In this document: positions 16,051 through 64,000 of the stretch, piece after piece | Position numbering within the stretch: position 1 is the first letter of the stretch | How the letters are laid out: each line of letters opens with the position of its first letter | Assembly: GCA_938743325.2 (NCBI GenBank) | Contig: OW568868.1 | Span: 930,001-994,000, forward strand | From: Pycnococcus provasolii | Taxonomy: Eukaryota > Chlorophyta > Pseudoscourfieldiophyceae > Pseudoscourfieldiales > Pycnococcaceae | Direction of reading: 5' to 3' | Length of the DNA stretch: 64,000 nucleotides | Notes under the pieces: model-generated | Database searches by the model: none | Told to the model about the DNA's origin: nothing | What the model saw: only the letters and a program-made list of their open reading frames with translations | Translations under genes and position numbers: made by a program

Positions 16051-19000
16051 TTACACATCCTGTTCGTCAATCTTAGCGTCCACCTCCGCCTCATCCACCT
16101 CCTCCTTGGGCTTGGCGCCTTGCATGGCACCTCCGCCTCCAACGCACAGTCCACTGTTCACCACAGCGCCCACGGTGCCGTCGGATCCCAGGAACGCCTT
16201 CACGCCAACAAAAATGAATACGAACATGCAAATCAAAATCAGTGCACCTAAGCACACCAAGAACGACCGACGGCCTGGGCTCAATCCCAGCTCGTTCATC
16301 GCCTCCTCTACGAGAACAGCCTGTATGTCCCCCCACGCCGTCTTGAATTCTTGGTACCCAATGCTGCCCGAGCCATCGGTGTCGGCGCTTGCGTACAGCT
16401 TCTGAATACGGTCCTCGGGAAGCGAAACATTCAGATCGTTGAAGATAGCACGGAATTCTGAGTACTCGATTTCCTCGTCAGCACCTGCGTACCTCTTGAA
16501 GGTCTTAAACAATGCTGCGTCACCACCGTCCGCGCCGGCTGATGCACCAGGGCCAAACCCGTTGCCACCACCACTACCGGTGCCAGCGAAAGCAGTTCCC
16601 ATAGACGATACGCCCCGAGCATTCGAAAACGACTCCACAACAGGTCCGGCAGTAGAGCCAGGCTCCTGCTCAGTCATGGGAGCGGGTGCCGCGGCGGCTG
16701 ACGAAGGTTCTTTGCCTGGCAACTCAGCACTGCGGCGTGGGGAATCGTCCGCCACATCCTCCTCTGGATCCATCGCTTCGGCATTCGCGTCGTTAATCTT
16801 CATCTCGAATTTCCGTGCATTCTTCTCCTGAATGTTGTCCGCATAACTCTGCGCCTTCTTCGCCAGCGCCTTTGCACTCGACGTCACGGATGTCACTAGC
16901 GTTCCGGCAGCGGCTATGTACGGCAAGAAGATGTTCGGGTTGATGATCACGCCTAGCACCACCCAGCAGAACGCGCTCACGATGTAAGCGCAAGTCAGCA
17001 CAAACATAAGGCCAAGCACGGCATAAAAGAGGAGGCGGACGGATCGCGTGATAAAGTTCAGCCGCTCACCCATGATGTAGTAGTTCCCCAGCTCGAACGA
17101 GGCTACGACAATCCACGCAAGCACAGATAGCATGCCGTAGAGAAAGGTAGGCTGCACGCTCTTTTCAAATGCAAAGCCGTCGAAAGGCGAGTGCACTAAA
17201 GTCTTGAGATCTAACAAGTAAAATGTGCCAGTCTGCTGACCCGTTAGAGACTCGATATTCGCCACCGTGTTCTGAAGCGTGAGGAAGGCAAGCATCGCGG
17301 GAACTGGAACGAGCAAGACGAAAGTCACGTGAGTCAACACTTCGGACAGCTGTAGAAAGAACCAAGTCAGAACGTTCAGTTGAAGTACATCCGGGCCGCC
17401 CGAAGGCATCTCGAGCACGCCGTATAGATCCGTGTACTTCTCTCGCTTAGCGGGAATGCCCAGCAGCTTCTCCAGCTCGGCGCAGAACGAATTTTCGGTA
17501 ATCTGCTTGGCAAGCGTCGTCAAACCTCGATGACGCAGATATGACTTATAGTCTTCGAGCAGCGGTTCCATGAGAACAGCATGGTCCGCTTTGTTGTTCG
17601 TCACCTCTACATCAGCCTCGCGCAAGAACGCGTCGAGCTGCGTGCGAGGCTCCGGCCGTTTACCATGCACGACATTGTATCTTTGCTTCGGATCCAGGCG
17701 GTGCTTGCCATTCAGGTGCCGCACGCCACGCAGGACGTAGGGAAAGCGATCGCGAACTTTGATGCGAAGCTTCCTCCACACCTTGTCATCCAATTGCACG
17801 GCATCCACGCCGCTCTTGCGGCAGAAGCGGAGATAGTTTGCACGGAACTTTCGGAGGGTTGTCCGGAACGCTAACTCCGCAGTATGCGCGTAGTACAGCG
17901 TGATGGAGCGCAACACGCCCTCGTCCTCGCAGCCGAGCATGTACGTGATGTTGCGCGAATTGTCTGCGCTACGCGGGGCGGCACGAAGCAGGAATGACGC
18001 CGCTTTCAATGGCTCATCACGAACATTTGCCTGGCTCTTCAAAATAGGCGCGCCGACGCGATAGCGGGGCCCGTCGAACGCGCGCATGGCACCGAGCACC
18101 AGTTGGTATGCTGGGTCTCCAACGCCACACACGCGACTGGCGATTGACTCGGCGCTCGTCTCTCGAACGGTGGTCCAGTACACCTTTGAATTAATTTCGC
18201 CACACGAAGGCACCACATGTGTACATATGAGAGGCAACCCACCGCTAATCTTCGAATACGCGCTGCGCAGCAGTAAGAAGAGAGCAGCGAATATGCGAAA
18301 GTTTTTAATATGCTCCGCCACAGTTTTCATGTAGTTTGGACTCGGAACGTTGACGGACACGTAGTCAAGCTCGCAAAGGCGTTGCGCGGCGAGAGACTGC
18401 GGGGTGACCATTAGCTCAACGCACGTCGTATTGGGGAAGTCGCCGGGAAGCACGATGCCGCTTGTGCCTCCGATGCCACCGGCGAGCTTGCCAAACGCGA
18501 TATTTCGGTAGCATTTCAGGTTGACAAATTCTCTCAGCGAGTTGACGAGAAAGCCCTGAAGTCGCCTCACAATCACCTCGCTGATACGCTGGAAAACACT
18601 AGGTAGACTCGAGCGCACGCGTGTGGGTAGGACTGAACTTGCCAGACTCGCACCCTTGCTTTCAACGCTGGATATCGCCATTTCCAGCATACGCATGCAA
18701 GGAGCAAGCATGACAGGCCGCCTCTTTCGTATCAGCACCTGAATCTTGTCGACGACGTCCTTCAGGTGTGTGTCCTCCTGGCGTTCCACCTCCGCCAGAG
18801 CCGCAATAAAGGTTTCAAACTTAGCCTTCATAGACACCAAGAGGTTCTGGTGTGGGATGTGCATAGGCGACATGCCGTCCTGCGGATTGGTATTCGCCCC
18901 GAGTGCACCTGCCGTCTCACTGGCAATTTTAGAGAGCTCGCTTCCCATGCGAAAGGTGACCAATCGTGCGTGGGCAAGCATCACGTCGTTGAATGAATCC

Positions 19001-22000
19001 GTATATCCGAGCAGCGAAAAGAAGCCCCAGTACGCTTGTGCAACTCCGTACGATATCGTGGACTTGTACGAGGCAAACTTCATGTTCCGACCACGCTTCT
19101 CAAATTGCGCCTGCTTTGCAGCCACCTTCTCGAGAGCATCGCCACCAGAAGCGCCCAATCCAGCGCCAGCGCGCCGCCGGAACGATAACATCGACCGTGC
19201 CTCCTTGCGAAGCCCCCTCCACTTCGCTGCCGTTCCCTCTGGACTTAGGTCATCCACGACCGCATCCTCCTTCCAGCCGCTGCTCTGCAGGAATAGATTT
19301 CCCCACGGATTCCTAAGTTGCCTGGCAATCGGATCGAATGCCATGCCGCACTCTGCCCCGAACGCTTTCGTCTTTTCTGCAATGATATTCTTGTTGATTT
19401 GAAGCGCCCTGTAATCCTTGATTCGCTCGGTGCGATGCTTCTGAATAGCGCGATCTACCTTTGCACTTAGGAGAATGATCAGAACGAGCGCCGTCATGCC
19501 ACCAATCAAGCTGCTCAGAGCAATTGTGATAACGATCATCGTGTTCTTCGCCCACACCGCTTGAATGAGCTTCGGCGCGGCAATGTGCGACTCATCAGCT
19601 ACATACAGTGCCTCATTCGTGGAAAGCCGTCGCTTGCGCACGGTAAACTCCAAGCTCTCACCTTGTGATAGCCTCCGTCGACGGTACCAGGGGAATGTGA
19701 ACCACTGCTTGGTTTGATCCACAAACTTTGTGCCTGGCTGAATGCCGAAGTAGAGACGCGTCATATTGGGAGCCGTCTCAGCAACTGCCGTGAGATTCGC
19801 TGCATTGTGCGCCCGGCGCAACCACAGTGTGCGCTGAAGCGGCTTGCCATCAACGACATTCGGCAGCTCAGTCATCAGCATCTCGAGCAGCGCGACATCA
19901 CGCTGCTCTCGCAAGCTTGCACTCTGCGCATTGCTGCCAGCAGATGTAGATGTTGCATTATCGCTGCTGAGGAGGGTCACAGTGCTATTTCTATTCACCG
20001 CAACGGCGGCAGAGGCGGCGGCGGTGAATGGCACGTTCCATTCAAAATCATTCGTGTAGACGACCGCACCGGAAGACTTTTCGCAGAATCCCTGAGCGAG
20101 GTCAACTTCCATGGCGGAAATCTCAGGTTGAAGGACGCTGGCGGAGAGAAATGAGAGGATAGCTGGACCGAGCTCCATGTAAACTCTGCGTGACGCCCAC
20201 GTCCACGCCGCGTGGTTTGGCACGCCGGGGCCAGCCAGACGCATGAACACGAGCGCGTCTTTGAATTTGCCGTCTTTTGTGTACGCAGCCTGCAGCTCCG
20301 CCATTGTCTTGTTTGCGTTCACGCTCGGGTGTAAGCCACCGGAGAAGCCCTTGTAGAATGCATCGAGGTCGTCAACGGTTTGCCCTGATGCCTGAACCTG
20401 AAAGTGTACCGATCCCTCCTGAACGGTGACGAAAAAGTGCGAAGTGTTGCTCCGTGCCGTGTAGCTCTGCAGCCACGCGGAGTCCAAGGGCGGCGATGAG
20501 GGAGTCGGCGTGGTGGTGGCATTCGTCTCAGATGAGTTATTAAGGGCCGGCGATGATTGTGGTGGTGCTGGCGCACCATTCTGCGAAGTCAGATTTGTCG
20601 AGAGCAATGCCACCTGAAAGCAGTTGGGAGCAAATAGATGATGATCTTCCCCTAAAATGGACTGCGATGTTGCAAGGCGATCGTTGAACGTATTGTACGG
20701 CAGCGTCTCAAGCAGTGCGGCGGGAGAGGTGGAGTTGCTATCACTATGAAAGAGGTGATTGATGAGCGCGTCGCGGCGCGATAGCTCAGCAGCTGTGACT
20801 GGAATTAATCCTAGCTTGATCAGTCCTTCATCTACCTCTTTCTGCGTGACGAGATTATCCTTCTTGTCGTCGAAGAAGGCTGCAGCGCCGTCAAACGTGC
20901 ACGGCTCCAAGCGTGTGCTGCTGGAACCAGCTATGTTAATGGCCGAGGTGGCCACGCCAGGTTGCTCGAGATGCTTCCCCTGTAGGCACGCGCGCGACTT
21001 CGCTGTGCGATACAGCAGGTCTGCATCGCGTGCATGCGCAATCTCGACATAACCCTTGCCTATCATCACATCTGCCGCTCCGATTCGCGCGGCTGGTGTT
21101 GACTGCAAAACTCCACGCTGCGCGTGTATGCTTAGGCGGCCAATGGCCGAGGCGGCGAGCAGCTTTATCTGAACAGACTCCTCAGGTGAGCTCACCTTTA
21201 GCTCATCAAGGGCCAAGGCTTCGTGTGCAAGTACCACCTCGGCGCTGCCCGCAAGCTGTGAATCAGCTTCGGCAAGCTTTGGTAACGACATTGGATCGCT
21301 CGAATCAGTTGTATTTGTCACGTTAGTACCTTCTGCGTTGGTGGGAGAAGCCACAGGAAGTGCATCGACCGCACTCCCAATGTTGACATGCAGACTAAGA
21401 GGCCCGCTTGCCTTGCCACGGTACAGTGTAACGAAGCAGCTCCGATAGCACTCGGAATGGACGATACTTCCAGCGCAGCCTTTCTGATTTTTGATGGAAA
21501 GACGAGCGGTGCGATTCGCGTCCGCCAATTGAAGCACTTGCTTAGCCGTTGTGTTCGGAAACGAGGCATCCGAGGTACCGAGAGTGCGGTGAACGTAGAT
21601 GCGATGTTGCGTCGCATTGTCCATCGTCGTGACGTGAAGATAGCACGCCGTGAGATTCAGCTCGAGTCGAGAGACGTTGCGCGGCACCGTGAGATAACCC
21701 GGCTCGTAGTCGTAGCCACCATTATCATGCAGCCAGAAGTTCACGCTGACGTCCGGCAAGACGAGCGCTAATATGAGAAAAGTGATCGTGACGCAGGCTG
21801 CGATGACTGTCTGTCCGATGCGCATTCCATCTTCGGACGTGTAGTGCTGCTGGCGAGTGAGCGACGCCATGAACGATCCAGCGCTACCGAAGCTAACGAG
21901 GCGATGATACAGGTACGTGGGCATCGCGAAGCCTGATCCGTCCATGTCCATCCTAGCACTCGCCTCGCCGTCGCTGGGTGCACCGTCATCGTCGTCGTCG

Positions 22001-22875
22001 TTCTTCTGCATTTCGGCCACAGCGCCGGGGGGAAAGCTCTGCAGCGCGCCGAGAACCTGCGCGCGTCCTGTCCTACGATCCGGCTCAGCACTCTGTAAGC
22101 CGAACAATCGAGACGCAAGCGGGCGGGGCAACCTTGTCATATTCATCGCGGCACTCTCTGCGTCTAGCGATTCGTTGGTAGCTGCTTCGTCGTGAAGTCC
22201 TAGTTCACCGACGTGGTACTCGCGCTCGACAGCGTCGTGCATGTACCTTCCGACGAGTAAAACCGCCGCCTTGTTCCGCGCGTCTGCGTCGTCCGCCTCG
22301 CCGCCGCCCATAGTCTCACTTCTCTGCATCGATTTGCTCGACATGCCGCTCTTGCCAGCATTTCCTAACGTCGCCGTCGGTTGCTGCTGCTGGTTCACGA
22401 CGTACTGCTGCTGCAACGCGGGCTGAGGTGCGGCTGAATGTGCGAGCTGCTGCAAGTGGTGAGGCCGTGTCGTCGGCACAGCAGCATCTGCCGGCCCCTG
22501 TTGTGCATAGCTGTTGTTGGGCGGTGCTGTACCCACCTTAGCCGTTCCTGGCCTGGCCTGTATGGGAGGTAGGTGTCGTCGTGCCTGTCTCTGCGGTGGC
22601 GCGCTGAGCACCTCCTCGAGCGAGCGTCCCGCGGTGGCCGTTGCACTTGTTCCCTGAAGAGGCACCGCCGTCGCCGCCGCCCTCGCCGCGGCATCCGCGT
22701 CACCGTTCCTCCTCCTCCTCTCTTGCCTGTGCGCCGCCTTGGACTGGAAGATGGCGAGCGCGCCTCCTCCTCCTCCTCCTCCTCCTCCTCCTCCCGCGTT
22801 AAGGCGGCTTCTACCCGCGTGAGCCGAGGAGCTGGCGTTGGCGTTGTCCTCCCACGGCGCCACACGTCCGCCCAT
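16051..22875 (-). CDS. Giant multi-pass membrane protein with EF-hands, unrecognised
   Basis: A single 2274-residue open frame. The first 350 residues are disordered, with poly-Gly (about 28-38) and Gln-rich stretches. Transmembrane helix 1 is near 353-374. About 740 mostly polar residues follow with very many N-x-S/T sites, suggesting a large lumenal or external domain; it holds an EF-like loop (DDKKDNLVTQKE, near residue 675). Helix 2 is near 1115-1140. A roughly 700-residue presumably cytosolic region leads to a cluster of helices (about 1845-2010), a canonical EF-hand (DTDGSGSIGYQE, near 2160) and a final helix near 2210-2233. This suggests a calcium-responsive transporter, channel or surface sensor, but I recognise no named family. 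The ATG is the first in frame. Confidence 0.75.
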   Translation of the reverse strand: MGGRVAPWEDNANASSSAHAGRSRLNAGGGGGGGGGGGALAIFQSKAAHRQERRRRNGDADAAARAAATAVPLQGTSATATAGRSLEEVLSAPPQRQARRHLPPIQARPGTAKVGTAPPNNSYAQQGPADAAVPTTRPHHLQQLAHSAAPQPALQQQYVVNQQQQPTATLGNAGKSGMSSKSMQRSETMGGGEADDADARNKAAVLLVGRYMHDAVEREYHVGELGLHDEAATNESLDAESAAMNMTRLPRPLASRLFGLQSAEPDRRTGRAQVLGALQSFPPGAVAEMQKNDDDDDGAPSDGEASARMDMDGSGFAMPTYLYHRLVSFGSAGSFMASLTRQQHYTSEDGMRIGQTVIAACVTITFLILALVLPDVSVNFWLHDNGGYDYEPGYLTVPRNVSRLELNLTACYLHVTTMDNATQHRIYVHRTLGTSDASFPNTTAKQVLQLADANRTARLSIKNQKGCAGSIVHSECYRSCFVTLYRGKASGPLSLHVNIGSAVDALPVASPTNAEGTNVTNTTDSSDPMSLPKLAEADSQLAGSAEVVLAHEALALDELKVSSPEESVQIKLLAASAIGRLSIHAQRGVLQSTPAARIGAADVMIGKGYVEIAHARDADLLYRTAKSRACLQGKHLEQPGVATSAINIAGSSSTRLEPCTFDGAAAFFDDKKDNLVTQKEVDEGLIKLGLIPVTAAELSRRDALINHLFHSDSNSTSPAALLETLPYNTFNDRLATSQSILGEDHHLFAPNCFQVALLSTNLTSQNGAPAPPQSSPALNNSSETNATTTPTPSSPPLDSAWLQSYTARSNTSHFFVTVQEGSVHFQVQASGQTVDDLDAFYKGFSGGLHPSVNANKTMAELQAAYTKDGKFKDALVFMRLAGPGVPNHAAWTWASRRVYMELGPAILSFLSASVLQPEISAMEVDLAQGFCEKSSGAVVYTNDFEWNVPFTAAASAAVAVNRNSTVTLLSSDNATSTSAGSNAQSASLREQRDVALLEMLMTELPNVVDGKPLQRTLWLRRAHNAANLTAVAETAPNMTRLYFGIQPGTKFVDQTKQWFTFPWYRRRRLSQGESLEFTVRKRRLSTNEALYVADESHIAAPKLIQAVWAKNTMIVITIALSSLIGGMTALVLIILLSAKVDRAIQKHRTERIKDYRALQINKNIIAEKTKAFGAECGMAFDPIARQLRNPWGNLFLQSSGWKEDAVVDDLSPEGTAAKWRGLRKEARSMLSFRRRAGAGLGASGGDALEKVAAKQAQFEKRGRNMKFASYKSTISYGVAQAYWGFFSLLGYTDSFNDVMLAHARLVTFRMGSELSKIASETAGALGANTNPQDGMSPMHIPHQNLLVSMKAKFETFIAALAEVERQEDTHLKDVVDKIQVLIRKRRPVMLAPCMRMLEMAISSVESKGASLASSVLPTRVRSSLPSVFQRISEVIVRRLQGFLVNSLREFVNLKCYRNIAFGKLAGGIGGTSGIVLPGDFPNTTCVELMVTPQSLAAQRLCELDYVSVNVPSPNYMKTVAEHIKNFRIFAALFLLLRSAYSKISGGLPLICTHVVPSCGEINSKVYWTTVRETSAESIASRVCGVGDPAYQLVLGAMRAFDGPRYRVGAPILKSQANVRDEPLKAASFLLRAAPRSADNSRNITYMLGCEDEGVLRSITLYYAHTAELAFRTTLRKFRANYLRFCRKSGVDAVQLDDKVWRKLRIKVRDRFPYVLRGVRHLNGKHRLDPKQRYNVVHGKRPEPRTQLDAFLREADVEVTNNKADHAVLMEPLLEDYKSYLRHRGLTTLAKQITENSFCAELEKLLGIPAKREKYTDLYGVLEMPSGGPDVLQLNVLTWFFLQLSEVLTHVTFVLLVPVPAMLAFLTLQNTVANIESLTGQQTGTFYLLDLKTLVHSPFDGFAFEKSVQPTFLYGMLSVLAWIVVASFELGNYYIMGERLNFITRSVRLLFYAVLGLMFVLTCAYIVSAFCWVVLGVIINPNIFLPYIAAAGTLVTSVTSSAKALAKKAQSYADNIQEKNARKFEMKINDANAEAMDPEEDVADDSPRRSAELPGKEPSSAAAAPAPMTEQEPGSTAGPVVESFSNARGVSSMGTAFAGTGSGGGNGFGPGASAGADGGDAALFKTFKRYAGADEEIEYSEFRAIFNDLNVSLPEDRIQKLYASADTDGSGSIGYQEFKTAWGDIQAVLVEEAMNELGLSPGRRSFLVCLGALILICMFVFIFVGVKAFLGSDGTVGAVVNSGLCVGGGGAMQGAKPKEEVDEAEVDAKIDEQDV
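22763..22794. repeat. CTC trinucleotide microsatellite in coding sequence
   Basis: About ten CTC units on the plus strand encode the poly-glycine run near the N-terminus of the giant EF-hand membrane protein on the minus strand. Length polymorphism would change only the number of glycines. Confidence 0.9.
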
Positions 22876-23384: not shown

Positions 23385-24641
23385 TCATGCGTTGGCTGGC
23401 GCACCGGCATCCTCGCTTGCACGCGGACTTCCCATCTGAATGGAGTCCGATTCCGCGCTGCCGCGCAAGACGTTCGTCAAAGGCGGCGGTGAAGGCAGTG
23501 CGCGCCCACCCGACCGCCGCACGAATGCCGCACGGTCGTCGTCATCCTCCTGCGGCTCGAACGGCGCACTTGGCCAACTTCTCCGCAGTGCGGTCTTGGG
23601 CCGCCGTGGCACCTCGCGCGACACCGTCACGCTTCGCGTGACGAGCACGTCGCGTTCCCACAACGGCGCGTCCACGCCGTAAGCGGTCCGAGGTCGCGGC
23701 GGCAGCGGCACGCCGGCGGCTGTCGCCTGAAAGTCCAGCCTTTCCGGGTACGGCATGGGCGCATCGTATCCAAGTCGCACGAGGTTCAGCGCACGCGCCG
23801 CGGCATCCGCGACGTGCACCGACCGGCCACGGCCGTATCCCATGTCAACGTGGCATCTCCTTGCGTCGACGCGCGTGAGCTTGCCAAGCGCGGAGACGAG
23901 GAGTCGGCAGTGCATGCCTGGCATGCGCTTAGGCCCACGCGTGATGGCCGTCGCGAATTTGTCATCCGTCTCGCAAGCGAGTATGAAGACGTCAAGTCCG
24001 ACGGCGTTCGTGACGAGGCTTTCGCTGCGAAAGAGCTTGAGAAATCCCTCCGCCGCGCGCTGCGCGCAGCGGCAGAGCGGCCCTCTCGGACCTCGCTTCC
24101 TTTGAAATCGCGCGATGAGCGTCTGCGAGCCTGCGTACGCGACGAACCTGTGCGGTTCGTTTTCCTCCTCGCACCCTTCAACGAACAGCGGCAGCCAGAG
24201 TTTGATTTCATCGTCCGTGGGCGTTCGAGTCCAGTGTACGGAATTTCTGCCCTTGTGTTCGACTCTGAGCGGGAAGTCGCGCCTTTCGTACATGCGCCTC
24301 CACAGCGTGTGTTTGGATGGCGCGATGCCCCTCTCGAGTCGTTCAGCCGCGACTTCTTCGCCGCGTCCAATTTGCGTATCAGGCGTGGGCGTGGGCGTCG
24401 GGTTGTTGTGCAAGCCTGCCAAGGCCAGTTTATGCTTTTGGATTCCCCTCCCTCCTAGCCCTTGTTGTTTCTTTAAGAATCGGTCCGGTGCGGGCGGCGA
24501 GGTTGGGTGGTCGAACCCGCGCGCGCCTGCGTTGAGGAACGCGGCGGGCATGGCTTTGAACTGCGTGACTTCCGCCCCCCCCAGTTCCTGGAGCGTGGCC
24601 GGCCGCCTCTTCCTGGCTTGCATGAGGCGGTTGTCCGCCAT
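23385..24641 (-). CDS. PACRG: Parkin co-regulated gene protein (PACRG family), flagellar
   Basis: A 418-residue protein with a PACRG core from about residue 113 to 300. Diagnostic segments are LWRRMYERRDFPLRVEHKG, then IKLWLPLFVEGCEEENEPHR and FVAYAGSQTLI, matching the family's short-helix repeat start (YERGDLP, YLPLFFDG, EPYRF). PACRG lies at the inner junction between A and B tubules of axonemal doublets. The last 100 or so residues are an Arg/Pro/Ser-rich extension longer than in animal proteins, and the N-terminal 110 residues are also extra. The frame is open upstream but the first ATG is at 24641 (MADNRLMQARKRR). It neighbours a CFAP119-like gene, supporting a flagellar grouping. Confidence 0.82.
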   Translation of the reverse strand: MADNRLMQARKRRPATLQELGGAEVTQFKAMPAAFLNAGARGFDHPTSPPAPDRFLKKQQGLGGRGIQKHKLALAGLHNNPTPTPTPDTQIGRGEEVAAERLERGIAPSKHTLWRRMYERRDFPLRVEHKGRNSVHWTRTPTDDEIKLWLPLFVEGCEEENEPHRFVAYAGSQTLIARFQRKRGPRGPLCRCAQRAAEGFLKLFRSESLVTNAVGLDVFILACETDDKFATAITRGPKRMPGMHCRLLVSALGKLTRVDARRCHVDMGYGRGRSVHVADAAARALNLVRLGYDAPMPYPERLDFQATAAGVPLPPRPRTAYGVDAPLWERDVLVTRSVTVSREVPRRPKTALRRSWPSAPFEPQEDDDDRAAFVRRSGGRALPSPPPLTNVLRGSAESDSIQMGSPRASEDAGAPANA

Positions 24642-25436
24642 GGCAAGGTGGTAAGCTGACGTCACGCCTATTGCAGTCGATGCGTCGTTGTTGACTTGGA
24701 GAGTCAAGTAAGGTTAGGAGCGGAGAGGAATGGCGGGGGGGGAACGAAGGCGGGGCGGTCAACAAGAGGGCTTTGCTCGAGGGAATACGGGTCAGGTGGG
24801 GATCCGTCGTTGCCCACTCATGCAAGTAGACAAGTTGTCTGATGGCACTTCCCTTTCGCAAGGGCACAACGCATTCACGGGTCCCCTTTCGGCCCCAGGC
24901 CCAGGGACCTCACAGATGACAGAGGCACAGGCAACAGGGTGGACCTTGGTTCTTGAATACAGGGAACCACCATTCGTGAATTTTCGCCTGGCTGCCTGGT
25001 ACAACAGACTAATAACAGGTCGGCGCCTTCCGACCTACTGTAATTAATAACCCGTCTCGCATACATTAGTGTCCATCTGAAGGTAAGAAACCACACGCAG
25101 ATACCTTAGGCCGTCCTGTATTGATACCTTTACCGGTTCCGTGCACCGCACCTGTCACCTGTGCCTGTGCCTGTAGTACTACTGTAAGTACCGGTGGCAT
25201 GCAAGGCTGAATTCAGGGGATTGATTGGTCGATGAGAGGGTGCGCATCCCTCCCTCCTGTCCTGTCGTGTCCGTCTGGTTTCCCTGGTAGAGTGCACTGC
25301 AGGTCGTACTAACCTTACTGTAGGCTTCCTACCCGGTACTTACTAGTCTAGGGAGGCGTCCTCTGGTGTGCGTGTTTCGCATCACCAATCACCTCTCGGG
25401 ACCCGTCTTGTCCCTTCCTCGTGCCGAACGTCCGTG
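24642..25436. promoter_or_regulatory. Divergent intergenic region, PACRG and unknown gene
   Basis: About 795 bp between two divergent starts. No coding region, RNA gene or repeat array was recognised. It is likely a shared promoter for PACRG (minus) and the protein at 25437 (plus). No core promoter element could be named with confidence. Confidence 0.35.
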
Positions 25437-38346: not shown

Positions 38347-38502
38347 AAGAATAAATTGATGACCACTACTCACACCCCACTTTAAGAAGTAGAACAGGAA
38401 AGAGAAAAAAGGGTGGGATGGATAGTCGAACTTATTTGGGGAGTCGGGGATTCCCCGACCAAGACGGGCGTTATTTGCACTGGTCACAACTGCGTCGAAA
38501 AC

Positions 38503-39471
38503 ATGGTCGACGGCATCGATACAACTGCGAACGACATAAGAATATACAAGCACGGTCCTGTCGTAGCTGGCGTGCTCACTGCCGGAAAAGACAACGATCC
38601 TGTCGCAGCGGCGCGATGCGCTTCAGATGCCGTGCGCCAAACCCTGCTGCTATCGTATGCAGCAGTCGATGATGATGATGATGGGGACAACATCTTCATT
38701 GCCGTGCGTTCACCGATGCTGCACGTCCTGTCCAGCCCCGCCGCCGTAGCAGCAGGAGATGGTGGTGGTGGTGGCGAATCGTTCTACTGCATAATGGAGG
38801 ACAAGCAGCTGCAACCCGCATCAACTGTGGAAGCGCGACCACGCGGTCAGTCATGGAGTACACGCATCATTCCAATCATCAAAGGGCTCGACGACTTCCC
38901 GCTGATTGGAGATGTCAGCGCGATTGCGTGCACAGCCGCTCAACTTGCGTGGCTGTCATCACCATCCTCTTCTGTCTCGTCAGCATTGGCACGCGGGTGG
39001 GCACTTTGGCGCACACTTCTCTGGGCATTTGTGCTTGCGATTCAAAGCATACTACTGCGCAATCATCGCAAACTGGTGGTCATCGCACTCGGCGCCAGCG
39101 CAGATGCTCGAGACAGCAAACCTTTCAACTCCTCCCACATCGCTTCTCTGTGGAGTCGACTGGAGGCGCTACGTGAATTTGTCGGCATGACGCCGATGCC
39201 GGCTGATGAGCAAGCAGATTGGAATCATCGACGAGGAGGACGAGGAGGAGCCGACGACGGCGACGACGACGAAAGCAGCAAGGCGGCTACTACTACGGCT
39301 CAGCTGCTCAGTGCGTGCCTAGCTGAGACGGAGGTGTTCATCGGCATTCCTCCACCGCCTGAGCTAACACCTAGCAGCTACCACCACAGTACTACGAGCT
39401 TCGTGCACAGCCTCGGCCGGCGCATCCGCAACGCGGAACAGTTCGTGTGCGGCGACCAAAAAATAAACTAG
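38503..39471 (+). CDS. Unrecognised protein with a hydrophobic central segment
   Basis: 322 residues if it starts at the ATG at 38503; the frame is open back to about 38413 without an ATG, so a longer protein from an unseen exon is possible. The N-terminal third has IYKHGPVVAGVLTAGK and DNIFIAVRSPMLHVL; a hydrophobic part (WALWRTLLWAFVLAIQSILL) may span a membrane, followed by KLVVIALGASADA. Asp, Gly and Ala runs mark flexible loops. No family is recognised. It follows the HARE-HTH gene on the same strand with 156 bp between. Confidence 0.6.
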   Translation: MVDGIDTTANDIRIYKHGPVVAGVLTAGKDNDPVAAARCASDAVRQTLLLSYAAVDDDDDGDNIFIAVRSPMLHVLSSPAAVAAGDGGGGGESFYCIMEDKQLQPASTVEARPRGQSWSTRIIPIIKGLDDFPLIGDVSAIACTAAQLAWLSSPSSSVSSALARGWALWRTLLWAFVLAIQSILLRNHRKLVVIALGASADARDSKPFNSSHIASLWSRLEALREFVGMTPMPADEQADWNHRRGGRGGADDGDDDESSKAATTTAQLLSACLAETEVFIGIPPPPELTPSSYHHSTTSFVHSLGRRIRNAEQFVCGDQKIN

Positions 39472-60977: not shown

Positions 60978-63900
60978 ATGTCGGCGGCGGGCTCGAACAG
61001 CTCGGACGACACGTACAACTCAGGGCCGTACGTAAGTTCCGGGCCGTCGCCCGCGGCGGCTGTCTCCGCCGCCGCCGCGGCGGCGGCGCTTGACAATAGT
61101 ACGACGACGACGAAAGGTGGAAACGGCAACTTCGTCGCAGGCCCGGCGGCGACACTGCCAGGCTCTACGCTGCCAACCCACCATCACCACGATGCCGCCG
61201 TCGTCGTACCCGTGCCCCCTGCCAGGCCTATGCAGGATGCCATTCACCAGCGAAACCCGAAGCTATACAGCGCGCCGGCAGAGGGATCGGCGTGGCGGCG
61301 AAACGACGGACACGTGCTCACGAGTGCCGAAACACTCAAGATTCAACTCGCGGGGAAAGCAGAGGCGGCAGCTGAAAACGGAAATGGAACGATGACGACG
61401 ACCAAAGGAAATGTTGGCGATACTTCACCACACAATGGGAACAGCGTCACGCCACTGGGAAGAAAAAACTCCCAAAGACGACGCTCCATTTTCGGAAACA
61501 ACAAGCCGGAGATTTCAAACAGTATTCTCAAGAAAAAAGCAGACGATTCGACGCGCGCTACCAACATCAAGGTGAAACGCGTCAGATTCAACTTGGTGGG
61601 CCACTCCAAAAACAGAGACAAACGTGGCTGGGAACTTAAGACGTTCGAAATGCTCGAGAATTTCGAACGGACGTACGGCGACGAATGGAGTGCGGTCCTG
61701 GTGCTCGTGTGCATATTGGAAACCTTCATGCTGCCCGAGCGTCTTGCGCTTGAGTACGACATACACGACGTGAGCAAGCTGGAGTTCATCCTCACGGTGA
61801 TTGTAGACTGCGTATTCGCCGTGAACATTTTTCTCACGCTCGCGCACCTCATCTGGCGACGCGCCGAGCGCCTGCACATCGAATCCATGTCCACAAGACA
61901 GCAGAGCAAGCTGCTCAGCTCGAAGTTGTTGTCGTCAGGCGAGGACGGTGATGCCACCGTTGCCACGGAAAGGGCCCCCGGTTCATCACGCACGAAGAAT
62001 CGCCAAGTTATGAAGAAGCAGCGCGAAATCACAATCGCGGTGGCAAGGGAGAGCTCGTCGAAGCAAACTCTCTCCGACAACAGCACCGACGCCATTCATC
62101 GCTATCTCACCGGCAGGTTTGTGCTCGAAGTGGGAGCAATCTTGCTCATGTGGATTGACGCGTACTACCCGACGTACTGGTGGTTGCGACTCATGGCAAA
62201 TGCCCCGCGTGTGATTCGCATTCAGCAACTGGTACTTTTCTTCCGCCAGCAGGAGATGAACCTTCGCGTGGATGTGCGAAAGCTCGCAGTCATCAAGTTC
62301 ATACTGCTCATCATAGGATGCGCTCACTGGGTTGGATGCATATTCTTTTACCTCAGCCGGCTTTCTGGATTCAGCACAACACGAAATCTCATGACCTGGG
62401 TCGCGCAGTGGGAAATCCAAGGTGGTCTGACTGGCTACGACGCGGAATCCAGTCCGAAGTGGGAGAGCTATCTGCTCATTCTGTACAAGGGTTTCAACGG
62501 CCTGACAAATCTGGGATACGAACGCGTCGTGCCGCAACGCTACGACGAGATGGCCTTCTCCGTTCTGACAATATACGTGCACGTCATCCTCGACGCGTAT
62601 ATTTTGGGCACGCTCTTCCACTACGTCGTCAAAAAGGACAGGGCTGCCGAGGAGTTTCGAAAGAAGCTGACGGAGGTTCACAAGTGGAGCCGCTCGCAAA
62701 ATCTGCCCGAGGAATTGGAGTCGAGCCTAGTCTCGCACTACGAGTTCCAGTTCAGCAAGAAACGCGAGGACGACTCCAAGGTAATGAAGATGCTTCCCCT
62801 GCCAATCAAGCTGAAGGTTGCTAGTCACAACTACGGCAGGTTCGTGCAGCGCAACAAGTACATCTTCAAGGGATGCACGACTCAGTTCATCGAGCAATTC
62901 CAGCTCCGGCTTGGCGAGGAATACCTCATGCCGGGTGAAACGCTTGCGCACGAGAAGGACATGGCGAGAGAGCTCGTGTTTCTTGCATCGGGTTCGCTGG
63001 AATTCCACCGAGACGGGCAGTTTGTGAGGGTCCTGCGCGCCGAGTCGGAAATGCCCAACGCCGTGGGCGACCTGCCCTTTTTAATGTCCGTCCCGCATCC
63101 ATACACCGTCTCGGCAAGAACAACCTCCGACTGCACGATCGTGCTCATGCGAAAGAGTGCTTTCGAAGATCTCATCATGAACTACCCCGAGCATATGGAC
63201 ATTCTGCTGTCGAACGTGCTTGAGGCACAGGTGGGACTCGGCAAGTCTGGCGCCGATCTGGAGTCACCCGTAATGATCAATCGCGGCTTTGGTGGCGACG
63301 AGGACGACGAGGAACAATCCTTTCTTCGCTCATACATTCAGCAGGCGCTGCAGAAGAGGAACAACGAAGCTCTTTCCGCGATGACGTTTGCTGCCAGCGA
63401 GGGTGACGTGGAGACTGTGCAATCGCTTATCCATCAAGGCTTGCCCATCGACGCGTACGATTACGACAACAGAACGACGTTGCACCTCGCCTGCGCGGAG
63501 GGGAAAGATAAGGTTGTGGAGCTGCTTGTGAACGAGGGCGCGGATGTCAACGTGAAAGACAGGTGGGGACAAACGCCAATGCAGGATGCGATCAGCAACA
63601 AATTTGAGCATATTGTTGACATTCTGGCAAAGAATGGGGCAAATGTGGCGTATGCGGACCCATCTGGACCATTGTGCACGGCGGCTGCGGATAGTGATCT
63701 CGAAGGCCTGGGAACGCTACTCGACAACGGTGTCAACCCTGATGCGGCTGACTACGACGATCGATGCGCACTTCATCTCGCCTCGAGCAATGGCAACCTG
63801 CAGGTGGTGGAGTACCTCCTGCGACGTGGCGCAAACGTCAATGCAAGGGACAGGTGGACCGGTTCGCCTCTACTGGATGCCATCACTCACGGCCATGAAA

Positions 63901-64000
63901 TATGCGCCAAGCTGCTCCACGCGAATGGCGGTAAGATGAACATGGACGAGGCGGCGAATAGGCTCTGCAGTGCCGCTTCCGAAGGCGACCTAGAAGTGCT
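60978..64000 (+). CDS. Channel with cNMP-binding-like and ankyrin domains, pore filter GYER, partial
   Basis: At least 1007 codons, open to the right edge; the start ATG at 60978 is the first after an in-frame stop near 60762. The first 200 residues are disordered (Ala, Ser and His runs). Six transmembrane segments follow from about 61670 to 62630, including a basic S4-like segment (RLMANAPRVIRIQQLVLFFR). The pore reads LTNLGYERVVPQ where plant Shaker-type channels have TTTGYGD. A C-linker and a cyclic-nucleotide-binding-like domain (about 62850-63200) precede ankyrin repeats (TTLHLACAEGKDKVVELL, CALHLASSNGNLQVVEYLL). The layout is that of AKT-type potassium channels; with GYER the ion selectivity is open. 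The gene is cut by the window end. Confidence 0.87.
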   Translation, partial: MSAAGSNSSDDTYNSGPYVSSGPSPAAAVSAAAAAAALDNSTTTTKGGNGNFVAGPAATLPGSTLPTHHHHDAAVVVPVPPARPMQDAIHQRNPKLYSAPAEGSAWRRNDGHVLTSAETLKIQLAGKAEAAAENGNGTMTTTKGNVGDTSPHNGNSVTPLGRKNSQRRRSIFGNNKPEISNSILKKKADDSTRATNIKVKRVRFNLVGHSKNRDKRGWELKTFEMLENFERTYGDEWSAVLVLVCILETFMLPERLALEYDIHDVSKLEFILTVIVDCVFAVNIFLTLAHLIWRRAERLHIESMSTRQQSKLLSSKLLSSGEDGDATVATERAPGSSRTKNRQVMKKQREITIAVARESSSKQTLSDNSTDAIHRYLTGRFVLEVGAILLMWIDAYYPTYWWLRLMANAPRVIRIQQLVLFFRQQEMNLRVDVRKLAVIKFILLIIGCAHWVGCIFFYLSRLSGFSTTRNLMTWVAQWEIQGGLTGYDAESSPKWESYLLILYKGFNGLTNLGYERVVPQRYDEMAFSVLTIYVHVILDAYILGTLFHYVVKKDRAAEEFRKKLTEVHKWSRSQNLPEELESSLVSHYEFQFSKKREDDSKVMKMLPLPIKLKVASHNYGRFVQRNKYIFKGCTTQFIEQFQLRLGEEYLMPGETLAHEKDMARELVFLASGSLEFHRDGQFVRVLRAESEMPNAVGDLPFLMSVPHPYTVSARTTSDCTIVLMRKSAFEDLIMNYPEHMDILLSNVLEAQVGLGKSGADLESPVMINRGFGGDEDDEEQSFLRSYIQQALQKRNNEALSAMTFAASEGDVETVQSLIHQGLPIDAYDYDNRTTLHLACAEGKDKVVELLVNEGADVNVKDRWGQTPMQDAISNKFEHIVDILAKNGANVAYADPSGPLCTAAADSDLEGLGTLLDNGVNPDAADYDDRCALHLASSNGNLQVVEYLLRRGANVNARDRWTGSPLLDAITHGHEICAKLLHANGGKMNMDEAANRLCSAASEGDLEV

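What the first reader, a model, noticed from the sequence alone, without database searches (positions are those of the whole stretch)
62480..62560. AKT-like channel whose selectivity filter reads GYER instead of GYGD
The gene has the full plan of a plant Shaker channel (six helices, C-linker, cyclic-nucleotide-binding-like domain, ankyrin repeats), yet the pore codons 62502-62525 give L-T-N-L-G-Y-E-R. Potassium channels need T-x-G-Y-G-D; the second glycine and aspartate are replaced by glutamate and arginine. This predicts a channel not selective for potassium, or gated differently, in an otherwise orthodox framework.
Basis: partly seen in the sequence, partly recalled or inferred. Interest (0 to 1): 0.78.

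Follow-up and report, generated by a model that had tools for sequence, protein, structure and literature searches.

The report
Algal potassium-channel relative, degenerate ion filter
A gene that probably comes from a green alga encodes a protein built like a plant potassium channel, but four of the six residues of the potassium filter are replaced, so it probably does not work as an ordinary potassium channel; what it does instead is untested.

Summary
An open frame from ATG 60978 to the window end (1007 residues seen) reads L-T-N-L-G-Y-E-R at 62502-62525. The protein has a cyclic-nucleotide-binding-type domain and ankyrin repeats. Its best solved relatives are the plant outward rectifiers SKOR (E 1.6e-39) and GORK (1.2e-36), ahead of AKT1 (5.3e-16): 'AKT-like' should read 'SKOR/GORK-like'. 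The alignment is ungapped through the pore.

SKOR's TVGYGD aligns with NLGYER: four of six filter positions differ, and the filter Thr is Asn. A Lys enters the pore helix and an Asp replaces a Gly in S6.

No relative turned up in the collections searched, so conservation in a clade is untested. Second-glycine variants (GYRD, GYSD, GYSE) are already described in protozoa as likely non-selective or non-functional (PMC3283738). Deviations in this channel cluster are called rare and individual (PMC7576140). Verdict: a real sequence feature, a new variant of a known kind; the function is inference.

The parts
60978..64000 (+). open reading frame of the channel-like protein, 1007 residues seen, open at the window end; start codon chosen as the first ATG after the low-homology leader (inferred)
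   Evidence: codon usage
61695..61865 (+). S1 and S2 hydrophobic segments (residues 240-258 and 270-296)
   Evidence: hydropathy
61866..62093 (+). long hydrophilic insert between S2 and S3 (about residues 297-372)
   Evidence: read from the translation and the hydropathy gap; boundaries approximate
62106..62243 (+). S3 and S4 (residues 377-422); S4 aligned to SKOR RLYRVHRV as RVIRIQQL
   Evidence: boundaries approximate
62298..62354 (+). S5 (residues 441-459)
   Evidence: hydropathy; aligned to SKOR
62466..62507 (+). pore helix, LYKGFNGLT against SKOR MYFAVVTMA (a Lys in place of Phe)
62508..62525 (+). filter, N-L-G-Y-E-R (residues 511-516) aligned to SKOR and GORK T-V-G-Y-G-D
62550..62627 (+). 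S6 (residues 525-550), ILDAYILG against SKOR ILGAYLIG
62628..62918 (+). C-linker region
   Evidence: aligned to SKOR and GORK
62919..63185 (+). cyclic-nucleotide-binding-type domain (residues 648-736)
   Evidence: PF00027 E 3e-10, 40.4 bits against cut-off 27.5
63387..64000 (+). ankyrin repeats (from about residue 804), cut by the window end
   Evidence: PF12796 E 2e-35

Best explanation
This is a genuine member of the plant-type Shaker lineage by descent (closest solved relatives SKOR/GORK), whose potassium filter has degenerated: TVGYGD has become NLGYER. Shown: the frame, the domains, the alignment and the substitutions. Inferred: a ring of four Glu-Arg pairs at the outer filter, Asn in place of the Thr at the inner site and a Lys in the pore helix do not allow the stacked carbonyl cage, so a tetramer of this subunit alone does not pass potassium selectively. 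The most likely working mode, also inferred, is a subunit that still assembles through its voltage sensor, C-linker, nucleotide-type domain and ankyrin repeats, and tunes or silences canonical partners or signals by conformation, rather than conducting potassium itself. I put about 0.85 on 'not potassium-selective on its own' and 0.45 on the silent or regulatory mode.
For: Ungapped pore alignment with the substitutions; intact long frame with coding-type codon usage through the pore; domains kept C-terminal of the pore. Published passages: mutations of the second glycine eliminate K+ selectivity and function, and natural GYRD, GYSD, GYSE channels are marked likely non-selective or non-functional (PMC3283738, passages); KCNQ1 variants G316E, G316R, D317N and others at the same place are listed in the long-QT table (PMC7212895, table passage). 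Regulatory subunits of this kind exist: AtKC1 is named as a negative regulator of AKT1 in an abstract (PMC9515098, listing), and TASK-5 is silent alone but works in heterodimers (PMC11364637, listing abstract).
Against: One paper reports that KCNQ2 Gly281Glu, which by recall is the same filter position, still carries 77.2% of wild-type current as a homomer (PMC8909571, passages), so Gly to Glu alone need not abolish conduction. HCN channels conduct with another residue after GYG (recalled). No partner channel was found in the window (tblastn next-best E 1.8), no expression data exist, no relative shows the filter conserved, and the structure prediction was too poor to use (mean pLDDT 37.1).
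Confidence: 0.45

Rival explanations
1. The pore conducts, but another way: the Glu ring forms a cation-attracting site at the outer mouth and the channel is a non-selective or divalent-permeable cation channel, as happened separately in animal CNG and plant CNGC channels.
For: The rest of the pore domain aligns end to end with conducting channels, Gly-Tyr is kept, and non-canonical filters in CNG and CNGC are said to have evolved from TVGY/FG (PMC7576140, passage). KCNQ2 Gly281Glu still conducts in one study (PMC8909571).
Against: The filter has an Arg next to the Glu, plus a Lys in the pore helix, which would tend to cancel or repel; no relatives show a conserved new filter; the match to CNGC15b is far weaker than to SKOR (7.8e-12 against 1.6e-39).
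Confidence: 0.35
2. A recent loss-of-function allele or early pseudogene: the filter is drifting and the rest has not yet decayed.
For: [quoted passage not shown] several conserved positions have changed at once.
Against: More than a thousand codons open with coding-type usage in all 20 windows; domain matches remain strong.
Confidence: 0.12
3. Sequence or assembly error, or an intron, hides an ordinary GYGD filter.
For: No reads or second assembly could be checked; GT and AG dinucleotides are present around the site.
Against: At least four base changes separate the codons from T-x-G-Y-G-D; no frame gives G[YFL]G; the homology runs through the site without a gap.
Confidence: 0.04
4. It is potassium-selective after all with an unusual filter geometry.
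For: Selectivity cannot be read from primary structure with certainty (stated in PMC7576140, passage).
Against: Four of six filter residues changed including the Thr and the second Gly.
Confidence: 0.04

Closest known systems
SKOR and GORK, plant outward-rectifying Shaker channels
   Same: Best matches among solved structures over S4 to the nucleotide-type domain (E 1.6e-39 and 1.2e-36); ankyrin repeats after that domain (SKOR/GORK ankyrins recalled and in abstracts)
   Different: About 26-27% identity; filter NLGYER for TVGYGD; Lys in pore helix, Asp for Gly in S6; long S2-S3 insert
GYX proteins of Leishmania, Trypanosoma and Trichomonas
   Same: Potassium-channel homologues whose second filter glycine is replaced (GYRD, GYSD, GYSE), read as non-selective or non-functional (PMC3283738, passages)
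   Different: Those keep D or E after the replaced glycine; those of Leishmania and T. cruzi are neighbours of canonical paralogues, none was found in this window
HCN channels
   Same: 6TM with C-linker and nucleotide-binding domain, a residue other than Asp after GYG (recalled)
   Different: Second glycine kept; much weaker match (HCN4 E 8.6e-13)
Plant CNGC and animal CNG channels
   Same: Relatives with non-canonical filters that conduct cations (PMC7576140)
   Different: Different filter letters; weaker matches (CNGC15b 7.8e-12, CNGA1 3.9e-19)
AtKC1/KAT3
   Same: Regulatory subunit in the plant Shaker family (PMC9515098, abstract in listing)
   Different: KAT3 match is weaker than SKOR (1.1e-18); AtKC1 keeps a GYGD-type filter as far as I recall

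Membership tests
Plant Shaker (SKOR/GORK-type) voltage-gated potassium channel | Sequence kinship through voltage sensor, pore, C-linker and nucleotide-type domain | tested here: met
   SKOR 1.6e-39, GORK 1.2e-36; S1 and S2 lie outside the matched stretch
Plant Shaker (SKOR/GORK-type) voltage-gated potassium channel | Six membrane helices with charged S4 | tested here: inconclusive
   S1, S2, S3, S5, S6 by hydropathy; S4 by alignment with some basic positions kept and one Arg replaced by Gln; Ion_trans below cut-off
Plant Shaker (SKOR/GORK-type) voltage-gated potassium channel | TxGYGD potassium filter | tested here: not met
   NLGYER
Plant Shaker (SKOR/GORK-type) voltage-gated potassium channel | Ankyrin repeats after the nucleotide-type domain | tested here: met
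   PF12796 E 2e-35
Plant Shaker (SKOR/GORK-type) voltage-gated potassium channel | C-terminal KHA domain | not testable with these tools
   The gene runs off the window
Plant Shaker (SKOR/GORK-type) voltage-gated potassium channel | Potassium current | not testable with these tools
   Needs electrophysiology
GYX-type potassium-channel homologues | Potassium-channel pore with the second filter glycine replaced | tested here: met
   GYE at 62514-62522 aligned to GYG
GYX-type potassium-channel homologues | Canonical paralogue next door (Leishmania, T. cruzi) | tested here: inconclusive
   None upstream in the window; downstream side not visible
Plant CNGC | Closest kinship to CNGC rather than Shaker | tested here: not met
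   CNGC15b 7.8e-12 against SKOR 1.6e-39
HCN | GYG kept in the filter | tested here: not met
   GYE

The most novel reading that the evidence does not exclude
A SKOR/GORK-type channel in a probable green alga has turned its potassium filter into a charged Glu-Arg ring and is in use, either as a cation channel of a new selectivity or as a voltage- and ligand-sensing subunit that signals without conducting potassium.
Probability: 0.3. Interest if true: 0.65.

Novelty: new variant of a known kind. Interest (0 to 1): 0.42.

Why it matters
If conserved and functional, it would be a natural experiment on how a potassium filter can be dismantled inside a plant-type channel. A published screen of green-algal genomes used, among three motifs, [S,T]-x-x-T-x-G-[Y,F,L]-G-[D,E] (PMC3410407, passage), which this pore does not match, so motif screens of that kind can pass over such proteins. 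If it is an isolated oddity, it matters little.

Tried and rejected
A DNA pattern for L-G-Y-E-R-V-V-P in viral contigs gave 14 stretches. tblastn of the channel against all 16 loci then held had a best E of 0.33, and the 14 translated contexts do not look like channel pores. These collections hold mainly prokaryotic and viral DNA, so the blank says little about algae.

Structure: AlphaFold2 of residues 61578-63340 without relatives gave mean pLDDT 37.1; not used, no fold search made.

Literature: 'GYER' with 'selectivity filter' in 0 papers; GYER, GYED, GYEN, GYES with 'potassium channel', at least two terms, gave 3 papers, all about Hungarian society or labour and none on channels; a search pairing GYGD with green-algal terms gave 17 papers, none of which holds GYGD. 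Papers seen as passages: PMC8909571, PMC7576140 (26 outline and abstract), PMC8619664, PMC7372795, PMC3283738, PMC3410407, PMC7212895; none was read whole; others only as listings. PMC8619664 reports that the second pore of green- and red-algal TPK channels varies from GYGD to complete absence of the motif, which lowers the surprise. PMC7372795 on Chlamydomonas KCN11 held nothing on the filter.

Full report
What is there. One plus-strand frame runs open from ATG 60978 to the end of the window (1007 residues). Pfam finds a cyclic-nucleotide-binding domain (E 3e-10) and ankyrin repeats (Ank_2 E 2e-35); Ion_trans is found only below its curated cut-off (22 against 25 bits). Against the Protein Data Bank sequences, 97 distinct chains match at E up to 0.01 (60 shown), led by SKOR (1.6e-39) and GORK (1.2e-36), then KAT1 (1.5e-19), CNGA1 (3.9e-19), SthK (2.2e-18), hERG (1.1e-16), AKT1 (5.3e-16), HCN4 (8.6e-13) and CNGC15b (7.8e-12). 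With the pore piece alone the order again starts SKOR (2.3e-10), GORK (2e-8), hERG (7.1e-5).

The filter. In the alignment with SKOR and GORK (identity 27 and 26%) the pore segments are LLILYKGFNGLTNLGYERVVPQRY, TTSMYFAVVTMATVGYGDIHAVNM and TTALYFAIVTMATVGYGDIHAVNL. So TVGYGD becomes NLGYER: Thr to Asn, Val to Leu, second Gly to Glu, Asp to Arg, with only Gly-Tyr kept. The pore helix gains Lys where SKOR has Phe, and S6 has Asp where SKOR and GORK have Gly (ILDAYILG, ILGAYLIG).

Is it real. The codon-usage signal favours this frame in 20 of 20 windows and neither shifted plus-strand frame in any; 4 of 60 minus-strand values are slightly positive. No reading frame of either strand in 62301-62700 gives G[YFL]G. 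From the codons, at least four base changes separate the site from T-x-G-Y-G-D. The homology is continuous across the site, which argues against an intron there, though 123 in-frame GT..AG pairs exist on paper. Reads were not available.

Where it comes from. No genome is held for the window and no taxonomic search was possible. Eighteen other window ORFs were scanned with Pfam: 8 (RPE65-type dioxygenase, flavodoxin plus flavin reductase, complex I 51 kDa, MCM, sodium:sulfate-type carrier, class I tRNA synthetase, ribosomal S10, AP2) and 10 (among them aspartyl protease, JmjC/PHD/PLU-1, PACRG-type, Obg-type GTPase). Seventeen of the 18 had a match, one had none, and no match was to an ion-channel family. 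The plastid-type S10, the carrier, the flavodiiron-like protein and AP2 suggest a green alga; this is inference. No second channel lies in the window: the best match of the channel outside its own gene has E 1.8.

Relatives. Seven protein or alignment searches and one DNA pattern (checked) found no relative. Hence the clade test that would separate function from private loss was not possible.

What is known. [quoted passage not shown] plant CNGC were left out of that analysis (PMC7576140, passages). Protozoan potassium-channel homologues with GYRD, GYSD or GYSE have been described and judged likely non-selective or non-functional, and similar proteins are said to exist in prokaryotes with function unknown (PMC3283738, passages). 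Algal TPK second pores range from GYGD to loss of the motif (PMC8619664, passages). Long-QT tables list KCNQ1 G316E, G316R and D317N (PMC7212895, table). Against a simple loss of conduction, KCNQ2 Gly281Glu was reported to keep 77.2% of current as a homomer, with lower conductance than wild type (PMC8909571, passages); that position 281 is the second filter glycine is my recall.

How it most likely works. By inference, a tetramer of this subunit alone does not form the potassium cage. I favour a silent or regulatory subunit that keeps assembly and sensing domains (0.45), ahead of a channel with a new cation selectivity (0.35), private loss (0.12), and error or preserved potassium selectivity (0.04 each). 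None of these was tested functionally here.

Verdict.

Noticed in passing
window 16054-22875, minus strand: A 2274-residue ORF with several hydrophobic stretches whose only Pfam match is an EF-hand pair just under its cut-off (29.8 against 30 bits); a large membrane protein of unknown kind.
   Followed up: partly
window 23388-24707, minus strand: A Parkin co-regulated (PACRG-type) protein (PF10274 E 3.5e-10), by recall a flagellar protein, so the organism is probably flagellated at some stage.
   Followed up: no
window 61866-62093, plus strand: A long hydrophilic, Ser- and Lys-rich insert between S2 and S3 of the channel-like protein, unlike the SKOR and GORK segments aligned here.
   Followed up: no
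window 38413-39471, plus strand: A 352-residue ORF without any Pfam match at E 0.001.
   Followed up: no
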